From positions 1 through 64,000 of the forward strand of contig CATDIL010000003.1 in assembly GCA_949517355.1 (NCBI GenBank): 64,000 nt of DNA, given 5' to 3'. The notes beneath the pieces are model-generated. The model searched no databases. It saw only the letters and a list, made by a program, of their open reading frames with translations, and was not told the DNA's origin. The stretch's first letter is position 1. Each line of letters begins with the position of its first letter. The position numbers and the translations under genes were made by a program. Shown here one piece after another: positions 1-25,795 of this stretch. The stretch comes from an uncultured Mycoplasmatota bacterium (GTDB taxonomy: Bacteria; Bacillota_I; Bacilli_A; Mycoplasmatales; Mycoplasmoidaceae).

Positions 1-22
1 AGATTGAGAATACATGGAGAAG
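1..22 (+). repeat. Direct repeat, copy 1, in hsdS
   Basis: Twenty-two bases starting agattgagaatac and ending gagaag recur identically 507 bp downstream in the same frame and encode DWEYMEK. They flank one complete recognition domain and could serve as a homologous exchange point between hsdS genes. Confidence 0.75.
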
Positions 23-559
23 AGTGTCAAGGAGTTGGAGAAGAGTGTCAAGGAGAAATTAAAATTATCAATTCCACAATTAGATGAAATTGATACTAAT
101 GATTGAAAAGAATTTAAGATTAGTGATATTTTAACAAGAATAAAAATAAAATCTATTTCTAGTGTAATTAAAAAATTTAATCCTGGGGCTATAAATGTAA
201 TTGGAAATACTCAATTAAATAATGGAATTATTAAAAGTTTAAATGTAACAGAAGAAATTTATATACATGATAAAAATTCATTATCATATGGAGCAAAAGG
301 TGGAAAATTTTTTTATCAAAAAGAAAAATGAGCATCAACTGATCACGTACATATGTTTAAATGTAAATTCATAAATGAAATAAATGCACAATTTTTGTGC
401 ACAGTAATTAATAAACTAATTGAAGCTAAAGGTGGATGATCGACAAGTCTTGAATCTAATATTATTCATGAACACATTTTATTACCGGTTGACAAAAACG
501 GTAATCCAGATTGAGAATACATGGAGAAGTATATGAAACCAATTAATGAAATCAACTAG
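1..559 (+). CDS. hsdS: Type I restriction enzyme specificity subunit, 3' part
   Basis: C-terminal part of an HsdS subunit, which selects the DNA target of a type I restriction-modification complex; the 5' part lies outside the window. Frame 2 is open from the edge to a TAG when TGA is Trp. After DWEYMEK comes an in-frame heptad tandem repeat (EKSVKEL, EKSVKEK), matching the helical spacer between the two target-recognition domains; then one recognition domain of about 150 residues with typical HsdS wording (a glycine-rich FFYQKEKW stretch, then HILLPV), closing with a second DWEYMEK. The repeated peptide at both ends of the domain fits the pseudo-symmetric HsdS plan. No hsdM or hsdR is visible here. 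Confidence 0.8.
17..58 (+). repeat. 21-bp in-frame tandem repeat in hsdS spacer
   Basis: Two 21-bp units encode EKSVKEL and EKSVKEK; the first 18 bases of each unit are identical. A heptad at this position forms the coiled-coil spacer of HsdS. In the EcoR124 family, repeat number here changes the gap in the recognised DNA site; the same role here is inference. Confidence 0.7.
508..529 (+). repeat. Direct repeat, copy 2, at the hsdS 3' end
   Basis: Second copy of the 22-bp repeat, encoding DWEYMEK just before the HsdS C-terminus, in the same frame as copy 1. Confidence 0.75.
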
Positions 560-7940: not shown

Positions 7941-8303
7941 ATGAAAAAAATTAATAGTAAAAAAATTCTAAATCAATTAGAAAAAACTCAAATGAGAGAT
8001 GATTTACCTGAATTTCGTTCAGGAGACACAATTTCTGTACATGTTAAAGTTACTGAAGGTAACAAAACAAGAGTACAAAGATTCGATGGTATTGTTTTAA
8101 AAGTAACAGGTAAAGGATTATCTAAGTCATTTACTATTCGTAAAGAATCTTCTGGAATTGGTGTTGAAGAAACATTCTCTTACCATTCACCATTAATCGT
8201 TAAAATTGATGTTAACAGACGTGGTAAAGTTAGACGTGCATATATTTCATATATGAGAGAACGTTCAGGAAAATCTGCTCGTATTAAACAAGCTAAGAAA
8301 TAA
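7941..8303 (+). CDS. rplS: 50S ribosomal protein L19
   Basis: Large-subunit protein at the subunit interface, 120 aa. Family stretches FRSGDTISVHVKV and RRGKVRRAYISYMR are clear. Last of the rpsP-trmD-rplS trio; starts 3 nt after trmD. Confidence 0.96.
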   Translation: MKKINSKKILNQLEKTQMRDDLPEFRSGDTISVHVKVTEGNKTRVQRFDGIVLKVTGKGLSKSFTIRKESSGIGVEETFSYHSPLIVKIDVNRRGKVRRAYISYMRERSGKSARIKQAKK

Positions 8304-18471: not shown

Positions 18472-18822
18472 ATGTCAAATAAAAAATTAGTTAAAATAGG
18501 AAAACCTAGGAGTTTCAAAATTCTAGAAAAAATTGATGATATAATAAAATTGCAACAAATGAAAGAAATCTCAGGCAAAACTGTCAATCCTAAAAAGAAC
18601 AAAATATCATTAAAAGATATTGTGTTTGAAATGCGCGAAGAAATGCGTAATGGGTTTGCACAAATTAATAAGCGATTAGATAATCATCAACAATCCATTG
18701 ATGAATTAAAATCTGATGTTAACATATTAAAAACAGATGTTGCTAATATAAAGGATGTTATAGTTGATTTAATTCAAACAAATAATTTGAAATTAACTAA
18801 AACAAAATTAAACAAATCTTAA
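18472..18822 (+). CDS. Coiled-coil hypothetical protein, paralogue 1
   Basis: 116 aa. N-terminal domain MSNKKLVKIGKPRSFKILEK with IDDIIKLQQMKEISGKTVNP, then a C-terminal heptad region (FAQINKRLDNHQQSIDELKS, DVNILKTDVANIKDVIVDLI) predicted to oligomerise as a parallel coiled coil. This is reminiscent of the DUF16/UPF0134 coiled-coil families of Mycoplasma pneumoniae, but the N-terminus is not recognised. Tandemly duplicated with its leader; the unit length is 420 bp from ATG to ATG. Confidence 0.7.
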   Translation: MSNKKLVKIGKPRSFKILEKIDDIIKLQQMKEISGKTVNPKKNKISLKDIVFEMREEMRNGFAQINKRLDNHQQSIDELKSDVNILKTDVANIKDVIVDLIQTNNLKLTKTKLNKS

Positions 18823-18891: not shown

Positions 18892-19194
18892 ATGTCAAAT
18901 AAAAAATTAGTTAAAATAGGAAATCCTAAGAGTTTCAAAATCCTAGAAAAAGTTGATGATATAATTAAATTACAACAAATGAAAGAAATCTCAGGTAGAA
19001 CAGTTAATCCTACTAAAAAGAAACAGTTATTAAGAGAAATAGTGGTTGAAGGATTTGCTCAAATTAATAAAAGATTAGATAATCATCAAGAATCTATTGA
19101 TGAATTGAAAACAGATGTTAACAACATAAAAGTCGTTATGATTGATTTAATTGAAACAAACAGTTTGAAATTAACCAAAGCAAAATTAAACTAA
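18892..19194 (+). CDS. Coiled-coil hypothetical protein, paralogue 2
   Basis: 100 aa, close copy of the preceding protein: the same first ten residues and the same QLQQMKEISG-like core, but with a 16-residue or so deletion before the heptads, which keep FAQINKRLDNHQESIDELKT. The shorter coiled coil could alter or permit mixed oligomers. Function unknown; a regulator acting on its own leader is speculation. Confidence 0.7.
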   Translation: MSNKKLVKIGNPKSFKILEKVDDIIKLQQMKEISGRTVNPTKKKQLLREIVVEGFAQINKRLDNHQESIDELKTDVNNIKVVMIDLIETNSLKLTKAKLN

Positions 19195-20093: not shown

Positions 20094-20774
20094 TTATTGT
20101 TTATTCTTATTCTTGATCGTTGTTTTAGGTATTTCATCCATCATAGTTACTATTAATTTATATGCTGGATGATCATAAAATTTGTCCATTTTTATTGATC
20201 TTGTTTTTACTGCATTGTCAATTTTTTTGAATTCTTTAAGAATTTCTTCCATTTCATTTTTAATTTCTTCTAATGTAAATTTATTTAGGCAATCATATAA
20301 TAAATCTTTTCAATATTTATCGTTTTTATAAAAATTTTCAGGTTTTGTAGAAGTAATATAACTTGAGTTGTGTAAAAGCTGAGAAAAAGCAAAATATGCT
20401 TTTTGACATATTATTCTTTTTAAGAAACTGCAATTTTTTATTTTGTCAAATATAGGTTTATACTGTTGTTTCTTAGAAAGAATATACATATAGTCATTAA
20501 ATTCTCTAATAGAAATAGCCATAGATTTAAAAATTAAAAAAATAAGTTCGTTAAAATCGTTCAATATCAATTTATTGTTGAAATCAGGTCTATTAAGGGC
20601 ATTTATATAGTGCGGAAACAACTGGTTAATTTGTTGTAAATTATATACATCATTTAATATCTCAAAAGAAACTATATCTAATTTATTTTTTGTAACAATA
20701 GAAAAATCTTTTTCTTGATGAAGTTTACCAAAACTCTTATACCTTTCTATTGTTTCTTCTCGTTTTTTATACAT
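20094..20774 (-). CDS. Hypothetical helical protein beside type III RM (A)
   Basis: 226 aa, soluble, mostly alpha-helical by composition; not recognised. One TGA is Trp near residue 155, extending the protein by about 70 residues to TAA. The block FLKRIICQKAYFAFSQLLHN (117-136) aligns without gaps with a block in the reverse-strand gene at the other end of the island (25145-25795), sharing F, L, K, A, Y, S, H and N plus a following S. Divergent from mod. Position suggests an accessory or independent defence gene; role unknown. Confidence 0.65.
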
Positions 20775-20882: not shown

Positions 20883-20888
20883 TATAAT
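20883..20888 (+). promoter_or_regulatory. mod -10 box, short leader
   Basis: TATAAT ends 11 nt before the mod ATG; no Shine-Dalgarno. Confidence 0.6.
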
Positions 20889-20899
20889 ATATAGTATTT

Positions 20900-22759
20900 A
20901 TGGATTTACAAGATATAAAAAATAAAACCATTGAAATGATTAAAGATTTAAGTAATAGAGGTTTATTGATCGAAAAGCAAACCGAAGTTGCTACTAATGG
21001 TCGTAACTTAATTGATATATATATATATATAATTAATCAAGCAAGAAACGAACAAGAAGTTAATGTAATAGCTAATTTAATTAAAGGATTACAAGAGGGT
21101 TTCAATTTTCAAAGAGTACCAACAATTACAACAAATACTTTAACAATATTAAAGCCTTCAAAATATCAAAATGGCGAAATCTCTCCTACTCATAATAAAG
21201 TTATCATTTGTGATAATACAACGGAGAAAGAACATTGAGAAAACATTAATATTAGAATCAATAAACTAAATGAAACCAAACCTGAAAATCACAAAGAACA
21301 GATTGAAAAATTAAAAAAAGAAGAATTTATTTTAGCCCCTGATAATTTAGATGTTTTAAATAATTTGCTTTGTGATAAAACCATTCAAGATAATGGAGGA
21401 GTTGACATAATTTACATTGACCCTCCATATAACACAGGCAACACTTCTCTTGGTTATAGAGATTTAAGAGAACAAAACGAATGGTTGAATTTTATGAAAG
21501 CAAGACTTGAACGAGCATATGATCTATTGTCTGATAATGGTGTAATTTTTATATCAATTGATGATAATATGCACTCATATTTAAAGATAGTTTGTGATGA
21601 AGTGTTTGGACGAAATAAATTTGTTGGCAATATTGTTTGAAATAAAATGAATTTCCAACAAGGTGCTCACAACATCCAAAGAAATCATGAATATATATTA
21701 GTTTATTCAAAAAATGATATATCTAATAAAAAAATATTATTTAATGTTGACTCACAGAAACTAAAATTTTACACGGATAAATTTGGTACATATTATAGAG
21801 AATATTCATTTGATACTTCATTTGGTAATGATAAATTAATTGACAGACCAAGTATGGGATATATTTTTTACTATAATCCAACGACAAATGAAAAAATTAT
21901 TTCTGATGATTACATAAAAGATAAGGATGTAATTAGAGAAAATGATATTAGTAAAGTTTATAAATTTGATAAAAAACTAATAGATAAAGGATTTATTCCG
22001 ATTTATCCCCCTTTAAGGAAAGGTAATATATTAGGGTGTTGATCAAGAGGAATAATTGATGCTAAAAATTTTCTTGAAAATGATTTATTGGATTTTGTTA
22101 AAAATAAAACAAATAATTCATATAAAATTTATCCAAAAAAATATGTGGAAAACGGATATTCTAAATTTAATGATCATCCACTTGAGTCAATAATTGAATA
22201 CTCTTCAAGTGATGGTACAAAAACATTAGGCCAAATTCTAGATAATAAAAAATTTGGAAATCCAAAAAATGTAGAAATGATTAAATATTTAATTTCTTCA
22301 TATAAATTTAAAAAAAATCCAATTATTCTTGATTTTTTTGCTGGTTCTGGAACAACCGCTCAAGCGGTTATTGAATTAAATAAAGAGGATAAGCAAAATA
22401 GGAAATTTATACTTGCAACTAAAAAATTTGATTTTATGTCATCACTTAATAGTTGAGAAAATGTTGGAGAAAATATAATGATGGAGCGTGTTTTTAGAAT
22501 TGCTGACGGAACAAATAAAGATAACAAAAAGCTTTCAAAAAAAGAATGTCCTTGACTACTAAACAACTCTCCATTTGATATAGAATTTGATTGCTTAGAG
22601 ACTAAACAATATGATATTTCATTAACTTCAAAAATAAATCCTTATGAAGTAATTGACTTAGAGATTTATGGATATACAACAAAAATCCCTTTTGAAGAAA
22701 AGAAAAAAATAATTAATAAAAAATTTAATATTCTACTAAACCATTTAAATAAAAACTAA
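20900..22759 (+). CDS. mod: Type III restriction-modification methyltransferase
   Basis: Adenine-N6 DNA methyltransferase and recognition subunit of a type III system, 619 aa. The catalytic motif D174-P-P-Y177 (IYIDPPYNTG) precedes the SAM-binding F480-AGSG (DFFAGSGTT), the beta-class order. The variable middle between them is the likely target recognition domain. Four TGA codons are Trp. Near the N-terminus an (AT)8 tract encodes alternating Ile/Tyr and could switch the gene on and off. The res gene starts 2 nt after the stop. Confidence 0.93.
21015..21030 (+). repeat. (AT)8 tract inside mod
   Basis: Eight AT units starting at codon 39. With eight units the frame is open; with seven or nine the next codons contain TAA within about 20 bases, ending translation at roughly 45 residues. 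Confidence 0.85.
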
Positions 22760-22761
22760 CA

Positions 22762-25158
22762 ATGTTATTAGAAATTCAAGAAGAAAAAGTTAATCAAGTA
22801 GTTCAATTACTTTCTACCGAATCATTCGATAAAGATCATCCTTTATATTTCCAATCACCAACCGGCAGTGGAAAGACTTTAATGCTCGCAAGAATTATTG
22901 AGGAATTTAAAAAAAACAACCCAAATGAAAATTTTTTATTTTTGGTTGGATCTATATCAACCGGAGGAATAGAAAAACAAAATTATGATTCTCTTTATAA
23001 ATCTCAACTTAATGGAGCTAATTTTCAAGTAGAACATATATCAAGCGGTTTGACTACTCCATTGCGTCCAAGATATTTTACCGATGTATTAACAATAGGT
23101 GAAGCATCTTTTAAAAACAAATCAAATTTGTTTAAATTCAAATTATTAGAATCTTACCTTGAAAAAATTAGCAATTATAAAAAAATTATTTTTATAAGGG
23201 ATGAAGCACATATTGGGACAAAAACTAATAAAATCGATACTGCACAAAATCTTTCAAAATTAAAAAGATATTTTTACAAACAACTTTGATTATCTGCAAC
23301 ACTAGAAAATGGTAAAGAGCAAATTACCCCTCATGTGTGTATGTCATTAACTGAAGCTCAAGATGCAGGTCTCATTAAAAATAATATAAGTTTATTTGAT
23401 GGTGATATTCAAGATAATGAAAATGAAGAGCATCTTTTTGAACTAGCATGCAAGAAACTAAAAAAATTGTGAGGAACCAAAGAGGAGCCAGGAATATATA
23501 GAAAAATAAGTGATATTAAATGTCAAATTATTAAACCCGCTCTATTGGTTCAAATTTCATCGAAAACTAAAGGTGAAAAAGAAATTGAACAAATAATCAA
23601 AATTTGCAATAAATATAGTCTTAATTATGCATATACTTTATCAGGAAATAAAGAAGCATTCCAATCATCAGGCACACTTAAAATTAGAAAAATTACACGA
23701 GAAGAATTGCAAAAAAATGATTCAGATATTGATGTTATTATTTTTAAATTTGCAATAGCAATAGGATGAAACATTCCTAGAGCTTGCATTTTAAGCCAAT
23801 ATAGAAATGTTGAATCTGATAATTTAAAGATACAAACACTTGGTAGAGTGCTTAGAAATTTATTTGTTGCAGATGAATTGAATTTCAATAAATTAAGTGA
23901 AGAAGACCAAAAAGAAGTGTTAACTTGTTATTTGTATTCAGCACATCAATCTGCAAAACAATATGAAACATCTGTTTTAAAATTAAAAGATATTTTTATT
24001 AATGAAAAAGTGAAAAAAACTTTCCAGTCACAAACTTCAAAAGATGAAGAAGGAATAGGCTATGTAAAAAAATATCAAAAAGAACTTGTAAATGATTACA
24101 TTAACTTGTTCGATAAAAAAGTTAAAAATATAAACATTGATTCTATATTAAATTCTGATTCTAATCTTGACATTAAAACATCAAAGACTTTTTTTTCTGG
24201 AGATTTAAGTGTTGAAAAAATTAGTGAATCTCTTGATAGGCAGGGTCAAATTGGCAAACACACAACTGTTTGATTGGATAAAACAATTTCTAATAAATTC
24301 GAATTAGAAAAAGAATTTTTAAATTGAATTCAACATAATTCCCCGCTGTTGAAATATGTATTTAGTAAGGTGTTTGATAGAATGGACTATATTGATTCCG
24401 TATTATTTAAATGTAAAATTCTTCAAGATGTAATTTTCGCTAAAGAAATAATTGCAATTAAACGAAAATATCAAACAAAATCCGAACAAGACAAGACTCA
24501 AACAACTTACGACTTAATAACGAAAGAAATCACCCTTCCAGCAGTACAATTTTCAAACAATCCAAAAGAAAATATATTGGTAAGGGAAATTAGACATTTA
24601 TCAAAAGTGTTAACGACAACTATTAATGGGGAAAATAAACTTTTTTATAATTCTGATCTGAATTCTATATCAAATAATTCTCCTGAAAAGAATTTTTTGG
24701 AAGATTTGGATAGATATGTTGAAGAAAATCCAAACTTCTTAAGATTTATACACAGAAATGAAAGATCAAAAGAAAGTATATCTTATATATATTATGATGA
24801 GAATGAACAAAAGCATTTACAACACCCAGACTACATTTTGAGAACAAAAAATGGCACAACATTAATATGTGAAATTAAAACAGCTGGTGGTGGATTTGAG
24901 TACATTAACTCAGTAAAAAATATAGAAAAAGGATATTTGATAAACTCAAAAAAAATTAAAGATTATTTTTTTGGAATAATTAAGCATGCTAATTTTAAAT
25001 ATCAACTAGTGTATTATAAAGAAGGCAAAAGAGTGCCAATGGATTTTTTAGATTTAAGAGATAAATTTAAAGATTTTGATTTTAACGGTTTAAGCGAATT
25101 AGATATACTTTTTGACATAATTAAATGTTATGAAAATAATCATATTAACACAAAGTAA
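22762..25158 (+). CDS. res: Type III restriction enzyme Res subunit
   Basis: ATP-dependent helicase-nuclease that works with Mod, 798 aa. Walker A is SPTGSGKT near residues 32-39, motif II IRDEAH follows, and a C-terminal PD-(D/E)XK nuclease is visible as D690 (HPDYIL) and E704-I-K706 (CEIKT). Four or more TGA codons are Trp, splitting it in a standard-code reading; the frame is intact. Length is at the short end for Res. The 3' end overlaps the reverse-strand gene by 14 bp. Confidence 0.92.
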
Positions 25159-25795
25159 TTTTCTCAAAATTTAAAAAACTCGCATTTTCCTTAACATAAT
25201 TTATAAAATTTCAAATATTTGTTCCTTTGTATTCTTTTAATGATTCAAATTTTTTCTTTGTTTTATTGTCGTTAGAAATAATGGAAGCTAGATTAAAAAA
25301 GATAGTTTTTATTTCGGATATATCTTTATTTAATTCATTTTCAATTTCAGTTTGATATTTTTCTAAGATTTTGTTTGAGTGATTCTTGCTAAATGACAAA
25401 GTACTTCAATTGTGAATAAAAAACGAAAGTTCTTCGTAGGCATCGTTATTTAATGTTTTCTTTAAAAAAGCAGTTTTGTTGAAAAAATTATTAATAGCAA
25501 TATTCAATTCATTATTTCTACTTTTTATTGCATCAATGCAATCAATAAAGTCTCTTAACAAAACAACAAAATGCATTCAATTTAAATATGTAATTTCACT
25601 TGTTGTTTTTTTGATTAACTCTTTTTCTTGCAATGAAAGAATCTTTAGTGATGGTTTAGAATATTGAAACAAATATGCTTTTGATAAGTTAATACATACA
25701 ATAGCATTTATTAAACCGTTAATTAGTAAAAATGTCCATTGAATTAAATCTTCATACTTTATTTTCTTTGTTTTGTATCTGTTATTCTTTCTCAC
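25145..25795 (-). CDS. Hypothetical helical protein beside type III RM (B)
   Basis: 216 aa from a GTG start (no ATG available in frame upstream). Not recognised. Helical and Asn/Lys-rich with a hydrophobic patch at residues 20-35 that might be buried rather than membrane. Contains FLKKTLNNDAYEELSFFIHN (110-129), matching gene A ungapped. Two to three TGA codons are Trp. Convergent with and overlapping res, so it belongs to the same island; HEPN-type ribonuclease motifs (R-x4-6-H) are not clear. Confidence 0.65.

What the first reader, a model, noticed from the sequence alone, without database searches (positions are those of the whole stretch)
21015..21030. (AT)8 in type III mod is a two-way off switch
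The tract starts at codon 39. Losing one unit gives ...TAT AAT TAA and gaining one gives ...ATA TAA, so both neighbours of the present state stop at once while the present state is open. Phase-variable mod genes elsewhere use similar repeats to flip whole methylation patterns (phasevarions).
Basis: partly seen in the sequence, partly recalled or inferred. Interest (0 to 1): 0.68.

Follow-up and report, generated by a model that had tools for sequence, protein, structure and literature searches.

The report
Slippage switch in mycoplasma DNA methylase
A run of eight AT repeats near the front of a DNA-methylation gene in an uncultured mycoplasma almost certainly acts as a random on/off switch: the same gene in a close relative has nine repeats and is broken at exactly the predicted spot. 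This is a new example of a known kind of switch, and the other DNA-methylation genes found in this genome carry similar repeats.

Summary
Confirmed. (AT)8 lies at 21015-21030, from codon 39 of an intact type III mod (20900-22759, TGA=Trp) followed by an intact res. By frame arithmetic only 5, 8 or 11 units read through; 7 and 9 both stop at 44 codons. Chance does not explain it: about 0.0005 such runs are expected in the window.

Length variation is supported. The G033 ortholog at the same locus has (AT)9 and is frame-shifted off, yet the rest of the gene is open and under purifying selection (dN/dS 0.12). A second methyltransferase gene about 23 kb away is identical between the two genomes over 933 + 1756 bp except (AT)8 (off, this genome) versus (AT)9 (on, G033).

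All four DNA-methyltransferase loci detected here carry an 8-10 unit dinucleotide tract. AT tracts recur in the genus on R-M, Cas9 and BspA-like genes.

Closest precedents: M. mycoides MmyCI (AG repeats) and Ca. M. girerdii, where such repeats vary within a population. So this is a new member of a known kind. Switching of this tract within a population, and any regulon ('phasevarion'), remain untested. In passing: several R-M operons carry the repeat in a leader ORF ahead of a hairpin, resembling the pil1 attenuator.

The parts
20900..22759 (+). type III mod (DNA adenine methyltransferase), 619 aa with TGA=Trp; intact in this assembly
   Evidence: PF01555 E 5.9e-38; PADLOC MTase_III E 1.2e-62; relatives with solved structures Mbo45V, a Mod subunit and EcoP15I Mod
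21015..21030 (+). (AT)8 slippage tract, from the second base of codon 39, read as ...DIYIYII
21030..21032 (+). TAA met at once if one unit is gained (44-aa product)
21034..21036 (+). TAA met if one unit is lost (44-aa product)
21012..21014 (+). TTG that is in frame with the main ORF only when one unit is lost: possible weak alternative start
   Evidence: function not tested
21419..21430 (+). catalytic motif IV DPPY (residues 174-177); the next in-frame ATG after the tract is codon 199, beyond it
22331..22351 (+). SAM-binding motif I DFFAGSG, after motif IV (beta-class order)
   Evidence: Sequence read
22762..25158 (+). type III res, 798 aa, starting just after the mod stop codon; ResIII motor and a C-terminal PD...EIK nuclease-like motif
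   Evidence: PF04851 E 8.1e-16; PADLOC REase_III E 3.1e-37
20884..20889 (+). approximate place of a TATAAT about 10 bases before the mod ATG, in a stretch nearly identical to G033; implies a leaderless or very short-leader mRNA
   Evidence: Read by eye; not reported by the promoter scan

Best explanation
The (AT)8 tract is a slipped-strand on/off switch in the N-terminal coding part of a complete type III R-M operon of a mollicute. During replication the tract gains or loses AT units. With 5, 8 or 11 units Mod is made and, with Res encoded just downstream, the whole R-M system; with any other length translation ends after 42-46 codons, before the DPPY motif, so neither modification nor restriction is expected. 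This genome is caught ON and its near relative G033 OFF. Shown here: reading frames, inter-genome length difference with the predicted outcome, conservation of the switched-off gene, and a one-unit difference as the only change in a second R-M locus. Inferred: that slippage is frequent within a population, that Res falls with Mod, and that switching changes the methylome and possibly gene expression.
For: The run is far beyond chance. The frame table gives ON only at 5, 8 and 11 units. The G033 ortholog, in the same place after rpsD, has (AT)9 and stops at codon 44, while the rest is open and constrained (dN 0.113, dS 0.925, ratio 0.12). A second AT-tract R-M gene is the reciprocal case: G000 (AT)8 gives 146 aa (OFF), G033 (AT)9 gives 567 aa (ON), with 933 bp upstream and 1756 bp downstream identical, so the tract changes faster than anything around it. 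Of seven coding-tract R-M genes in the genus, two are assembled ON and five OFF. In G000, three of the four AT runs of 8 or more units sit on R-M loci and one at a BspA-like gene; the remaining MTase locus has (GA)8. Mod homologs elsewhere in the family carry AG/GA, CA or AT repeats of 8-18 units upstream of DPPY. Precedents: MmyCI AG12 off and AG10 on (PMC3498834); dinucleotide repeats varying within a Ca. M. girerdii population, affecting type III mod, HsdS and BspA-like genes (PMC5476646).
Against: No reads were available, so variation of this tract within one population is not shown. G000 and G033 are multi-contig assemblies and one-unit assembly errors cannot be fully excluded. G033 is a relative, not a strain, and its mod is 79-80% identical, so the 8-to-9 change at mod itself is not isolated from other changes; the isolated case is the second R-M gene. 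A phasevarion effect is untested.
Confidence: 0.88

Rival explanations
1. The tract switches the whole type III R-M barrier (restriction and modification together), and the selective benefit is DNA uptake or phage-defence bet-hedging; there is no regulatory phasevarion.
For: res is intact and follows mod directly with ResIII and a nuclease-like motif. AT tracts in this genus also sit in GmrSD and directly before Cas9, as expected if defence itself is the target.
Against: BspA-like surface genes are tracted too, so switching is not limited to defence. Both benefits can coexist.
Confidence: 0.45
2. The out-of-frame copies are ordinary pseudogenes or assembly errors at a simple repeat, and the ON state is stable.
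For: All data are multi-contig assemblies; AT dinucleotide tracts are error-prone in principle.
Against: The off gene in G033 keeps a 579-aa open frame with dN/dS 0.12. All coding-tract differences are whole AT units, and a full ORF is one or two units away. The second locus is otherwise identical over 2.7 kb. The girerdii study found only whole-dinucleotide variants, above error rates.
Confidence: 0.07
3. The tract tunes rather than switches: the TTG at 21012 allows a shortened Mod (lacking 37 residues) in the minus-one phase, so the three phases are full, weak and none.
For: TTG 21012 is in frame with the main ORF at 7 (or 10) units, and no stop lies between.
Against: No Shine-Dalgarno-like sequence precedes it, and the mRNA appears to start just before the normal ATG; TTG starts are weak in general (established knowledge).
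Confidence: 0.12

Closest known systems
MmyCI type III R-M of Mycoplasma mycoides subsp. capri (PMC3498834)
   Same: Mollicute mod-res operon; dinucleotide tract in the 5' part of mod with stops in both other frames right after it; shown to be on at AG10 and off at AG12 by Western blot and protection of DNA
   Different: Repeat is AG, not AT, and begins at nucleotide 320 of mod rather than nucleotide 116; here no activity data exist
Dinucleotide-repeat phase variation in Candidatus Mycoplasma (Malacoplasma) girerdii UC-B3 (PMC5476646)
   Same: Small PFOR-bearing mollicute genome with dinucleotide tracts of 5-12 units on type III mod, type I R-M and BspA-like genes; length variants measured in a natural population
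   Different: The window genome is not shown to be that species; its tract and gene are not described in that paper's main text (supplementary tables not readable here)
Haemophilus/Neisseria/Moraxella mod phasevarions
   Same: Repeat-switched type III mod
   Different: Known from established knowledge only; usually tetra- or pentanucleotide repeats; regulon effects demonstrated there, not here
Streptococcus gallolyticus pil1 leader-peptide attenuator (PMC3894217)
   Same: Resembles the leader-ORF tracts seen at other R-M loci in this genome and G034 (repeat in a short leader ORF, hairpin with T-run before the gene)
   Different: Not the mechanism of the window's mod, whose tract is in the gene itself; there GCAGA repeats control a pilus operon

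Membership tests
Type III restriction-modification system (mod-res) | Mod: beta-class N6-adenine methyltransferase with DPPY (IV) before FxGxG (I) | tested here: met
   PF01555, MTase_III, motif order in the sequence, PDB relatives Mbo45V and EcoP15I Mod
Type III restriction-modification system (mod-res) | Res: SF2 motor plus C-terminal nuclease, adjacent to mod | tested here: met
   PF04851, REase_III over residues 7-700; PD...EIK motif read by eye; starts right after mod
Type III restriction-modification system (mod-res) | Methylation and ATP-dependent cleavage at a short asymmetric site | not testable with these tools
   Needs protein or methylome data
Slipped-strand phase-variable gene | Simple repeat in the gene, of a length not expected by chance | tested here: met
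Slipped-strand phase-variable gene | Unit gain or loss turns the ORF off, reversible by frame | tested here: met
Slipped-strand phase-variable gene | Repeat number differs between related genomes with both states found | tested here: met
   G033 (AT)9 OFF versus G000 (AT)8 ON; reciprocal second locus
Slipped-strand phase-variable gene | Length variants within one clonal population | not testable with these tools
   No reads available
Phasevarion | ON and OFF cells differ in methylome and in expression of a set of genes | not testable with these tools
   Needs SMRT or nanopore methylomes and RNA-seq

The most novel reading that the evidence does not exclude
Every DNA methyltransferase locus in this 636-kb genome is on its own dinucleotide slippage switch (type III mod, IIG/IIB-like M, AlwI-like operon, DpnII-like M pair), two through the coding frame and two through a short leader ORF that can end in a hairpin just before the gene. 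A clone would then be a mixture of up to 16 methylation/restriction states with no constant methylation pattern, and the leader-ORF type would extend the pil1-type repeat-driven attenuator to R-M control.
Probability: 0.4. Interest if true: 0.65.

Novelty: new member of a known kind. Interest (0 to 1): 0.52.

Why it matters
It adds an AT-repeat case, with both states caught in two closely related assemblies, to the mycoplasma type III mod switches known mainly with AG repeats. It suggests that a very small genome has placed all its detected DNA-modification loci, and in relatives also Cas9 and type IV restriction, behind the same kind of random switch. Because res is intact, the locus is a good place to ask whether switching serves defence or gene regulation.

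Tried and rejected
The genome-contig scan with the Mod protein returned only the G033 record. NCBIfam gave no specific type III model. PF00145 and PF02086 found no further DNA methyltransferases in G000, G033 or G034 above cut-off; the second PF02384 hit in G000, at window 44680, follows a prfA-like ORF and is probably PrmC, not a DNA methyltransferase. Considered and dropped: that the two immediate stops are themselves a special design, since alternative frames here stop every 9-14 codons anyway and one of the two stops is not conserved in G033. Considered and not settled: whether the organism is Ca. M. girerdii itself; PFOR is present in G000 and over the cut-off in 25 of 36 genus genomes, so the lineage is similar, but species identity could not be tested. 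Paper searches for AT repeats with phase-variable methyltransferases gave no earlier AT-repeat mod; the library lacks most subscription journals. The genus survey took places from capped hit lists; not all runs were fetched and about 50 linked proteins were scanned, so class counts are a sample.

Full report
What was checked. The window belongs to a mollicute genome, G000, of 636,194 bases in 9 contigs, in which TGA is read as tryptophan. (AT)8 is present at 21015-21030, followed by one more A. With code 4 it lies in one 619-aa ORF, 20900-22759, immediately followed by a 798-aa ORF, 22762-25158. With table 11 both look broken by TGA, which is not a real defect.

Chance. The 16-base pattern occurs once in the window and in none of 100 dinucleotide-preserving shuffles. 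A first-order Markov estimate expects 0.0005 runs of at least 16 nt in 64 kb and 0.005 in the genome; one and four are seen. In the window plus contig C7 the next longest alternating AT run is 10 nt.

The gene. Mod matches PF01555 and PADLOC type III methyltransferases (E 1.2e-62), with solved relatives Mbo45V, another Mod subunit and EcoP15I Mod. DPPY is at residues 174-177 and DFFAGSG about 300 residues later, the beta-class order. Res matches PF04851 and PADLOC REase_III. The next in-frame ATG after the tract is codon 199, past DPPY, so restarting there would not be expected to give a working enzyme.

Switch logic. Only 5, 8 or 11 units keep the frame; the others end at 42-46 codons. One exception is a TTG at 21012 that is in frame in the minus-one phase and could allow leakage; the plus-one phase has no ATG, GTG or TTG.

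The ortholog in G033. The nearest relative that carries this mod, G033 (CASPLF01, titled 'MAG: uncultured Mycoplasmatales bacterium'), has it in the same place after rpsD. Its tract is (AT)9 and its frame stops at codon 44, exactly as predicted for one unit gained, while the remaining 579 codons are open. Between the two, the part after the tract has dN 0.113 and dS 0.925 (ratio 0.12): the gene that is off in the G033 assembly has been kept functional. DNA just upstream of the ATG is nearly identical. The mod-res cassette is 71-89% identical in 500-bp bins while several flanking bins exceed 93%, so the cassette has diverged or been exchanged.

The reciprocal case. Contig C7 of G000 ends where the window begins: its end and the window's start map next to each other in G033. 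It holds a second R-M gene: an N-terminal part, an N6_Mtase domain (PF02384; PADLOC IIG and type I MTase) and, downstream, a specificity-type protein. In G000 its tract is (AT)8 and the ORF breaks at 146 aa; in G033 it is (AT)9 and the ORF is 567 aa. The two copies are identical for 933 bases before and 1756 bases after the tract. One AT unit is thus the only change in about 2.7 kb, and it flips the predicted state. This tract is about 23 kb from the mod tract.

Genome and genus context. In G000 the four AT runs of at least 8 units lie in mod, in the C7 gene, ahead of a methyltransferase-AlwI-like endonuclease operon (C1), and at the 5' end of a BspA-like LRR gene. The remaining MTase locus detected, a DpnII-like pair on C5, has (GA)8 upstream. 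PF00145 and PF02086 found nothing more above cut-off. Across the 36 genus genomes, AT runs were sampled at 65 places; linked genes include type III mods, N6_Mtase and HsdM genes, a D12 methyltransferase, GmrSD, two Cas9 genes and at least seven BspA-type LRR genes, besides transporters, enzymes and unassigned proteins. Of seven coding-tract R-M genes examined, two are assembled ON and five OFF. Many mod homologs in the wider family carry AG/GA, CA or homopolymer tracts upstream of DPPY; some have none.

Comparison with what is known. MmyCI of M. mycoides has AG repeats in mod with stop codons in both other frames; AG10 makes Mod and protects DNA, AG12 does not (PMC3498834). In Ca. M. girerdii, another small mollicute with PFOR, 13 of 20 dinucleotide tracts varied within one natural population; affected genes included type III methyltransferase and BspA-like genes (PMC5476646). 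PFOR is also present in G000. The finding is therefore a new member of a known kind, with AT as the unit.

A related pattern seen in passing. Five R-M loci in G000 and G034 share a leader: a short ORF running through (GA)n, then GTAACTNCTCTYTAAT...GGAGG, a strong hairpin and a T-run just before the methyltransferase ATG. In four of them the three phases could be compared (three by script; G034 C7 read by eye from the same output): in one phase only, the leader stop falls inside the hairpin's 5' arm, 47 bases after the tract. The fifth, G034 C1, begins at the contig edge. The C1 operon of G000, with (AT)10, has the same layout with the stop at +45. L112 and L113 in G016 have leader ORFs whose long phase ends overlapping or next to the methyltransferase ATG (junctions read by eye). 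This resembles the pil1 attenuator of S. gallolyticus, where repeats lengthen a leader peptide and ribosomes disturb a terminator (PMC3894217). Direction and mechanism here are untested; the hairpin could instead bring the Shine-Dalgarno sequence close to the ATG.

Limits. No reads, methylomes or transcriptomes were available. G000 and G033 are multi-contig assemblies. The phasevarion claim is an extrapolation from other bacteria.

Noticed in passing
L172 (G000:C5 ~8192-8231, minus), L171/L173/L174/L175 (G034 C1, C4, C7, C16); L006:4800-4915 (G000:C1): R-M operons share a leader: short ORF through (GA)7-10, conserved GTAACTNCTCTYTAAT...GGAGG, then hairpin plus T-run before the methyltransferase ATG; in one of three phases the leader stop falls in the hairpin's 5' arm (+47; +45 for the (AT)10 operon). 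Looks like a repeat-driven attenuator or coupling switch, cf. pil1 (PMC3894217).
   Followed up: partly
L112:2461-2540 and L113:2477-2540 (G016:C18): AT tracts in leader ORFs ahead of HsdM/N6_Mtase genes; in one phase the leader stop overlaps or abuts the methyltransferase ATG, suggesting phase-variable translational coupling.
   Followed up: partly
L061:2521-2541 (G034:C3) and L111:2498-2525 (G024:C36), minus strand: AT tracts of 21 and 28 nt lie directly before, or run into, the start codon of Cas9 genes: possible phase-variable CRISPR-Cas9. A paper search found no described case.
   Followed up: partly
L109:2498-2516 (G024:C28), minus strand: (AT)9 inside the N-terminal coding part of a GmrSD-type restriction gene; the assembled phase is open from an upstream ATG.
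   Followed up: partly
window 15-55: 21-bp tandem repeat (LEKSVKE heptads) in a specificity-type subunit at the window's start; the assembly breaks here between C7 and the window. Repeat number in such subunits can change the spacing of the recognition site.
   Followed up: no
window 18472-18822 and 18892-19194: Two tandem paralogous small ORFs (MSNKKLVKIG...) in a region with many gaps against G033; no PADLOC match for the first.
   Followed up: no
window 20094-20774 (-) and 25145-25795 (-): Two unassigned ORFs on the opposite strand flank the mod-res cassette; no NCBIfam or PADLOC match.
   Followed up: partly
L005:881-898 (G000:C1): (AT)9 at the 5' end of a BspA-like LRR surface gene near a contig end; start codon and phase could not be settled.
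   Followed up: partly
G000:C1:146790-149056 (L006): The AlwI-like R-M operon is absent from G033 and G034, whose sequences match only its upstream flank; a ~60-bp stretch is repeated at its far end, suggesting a recent insertion.
   Followed up: no
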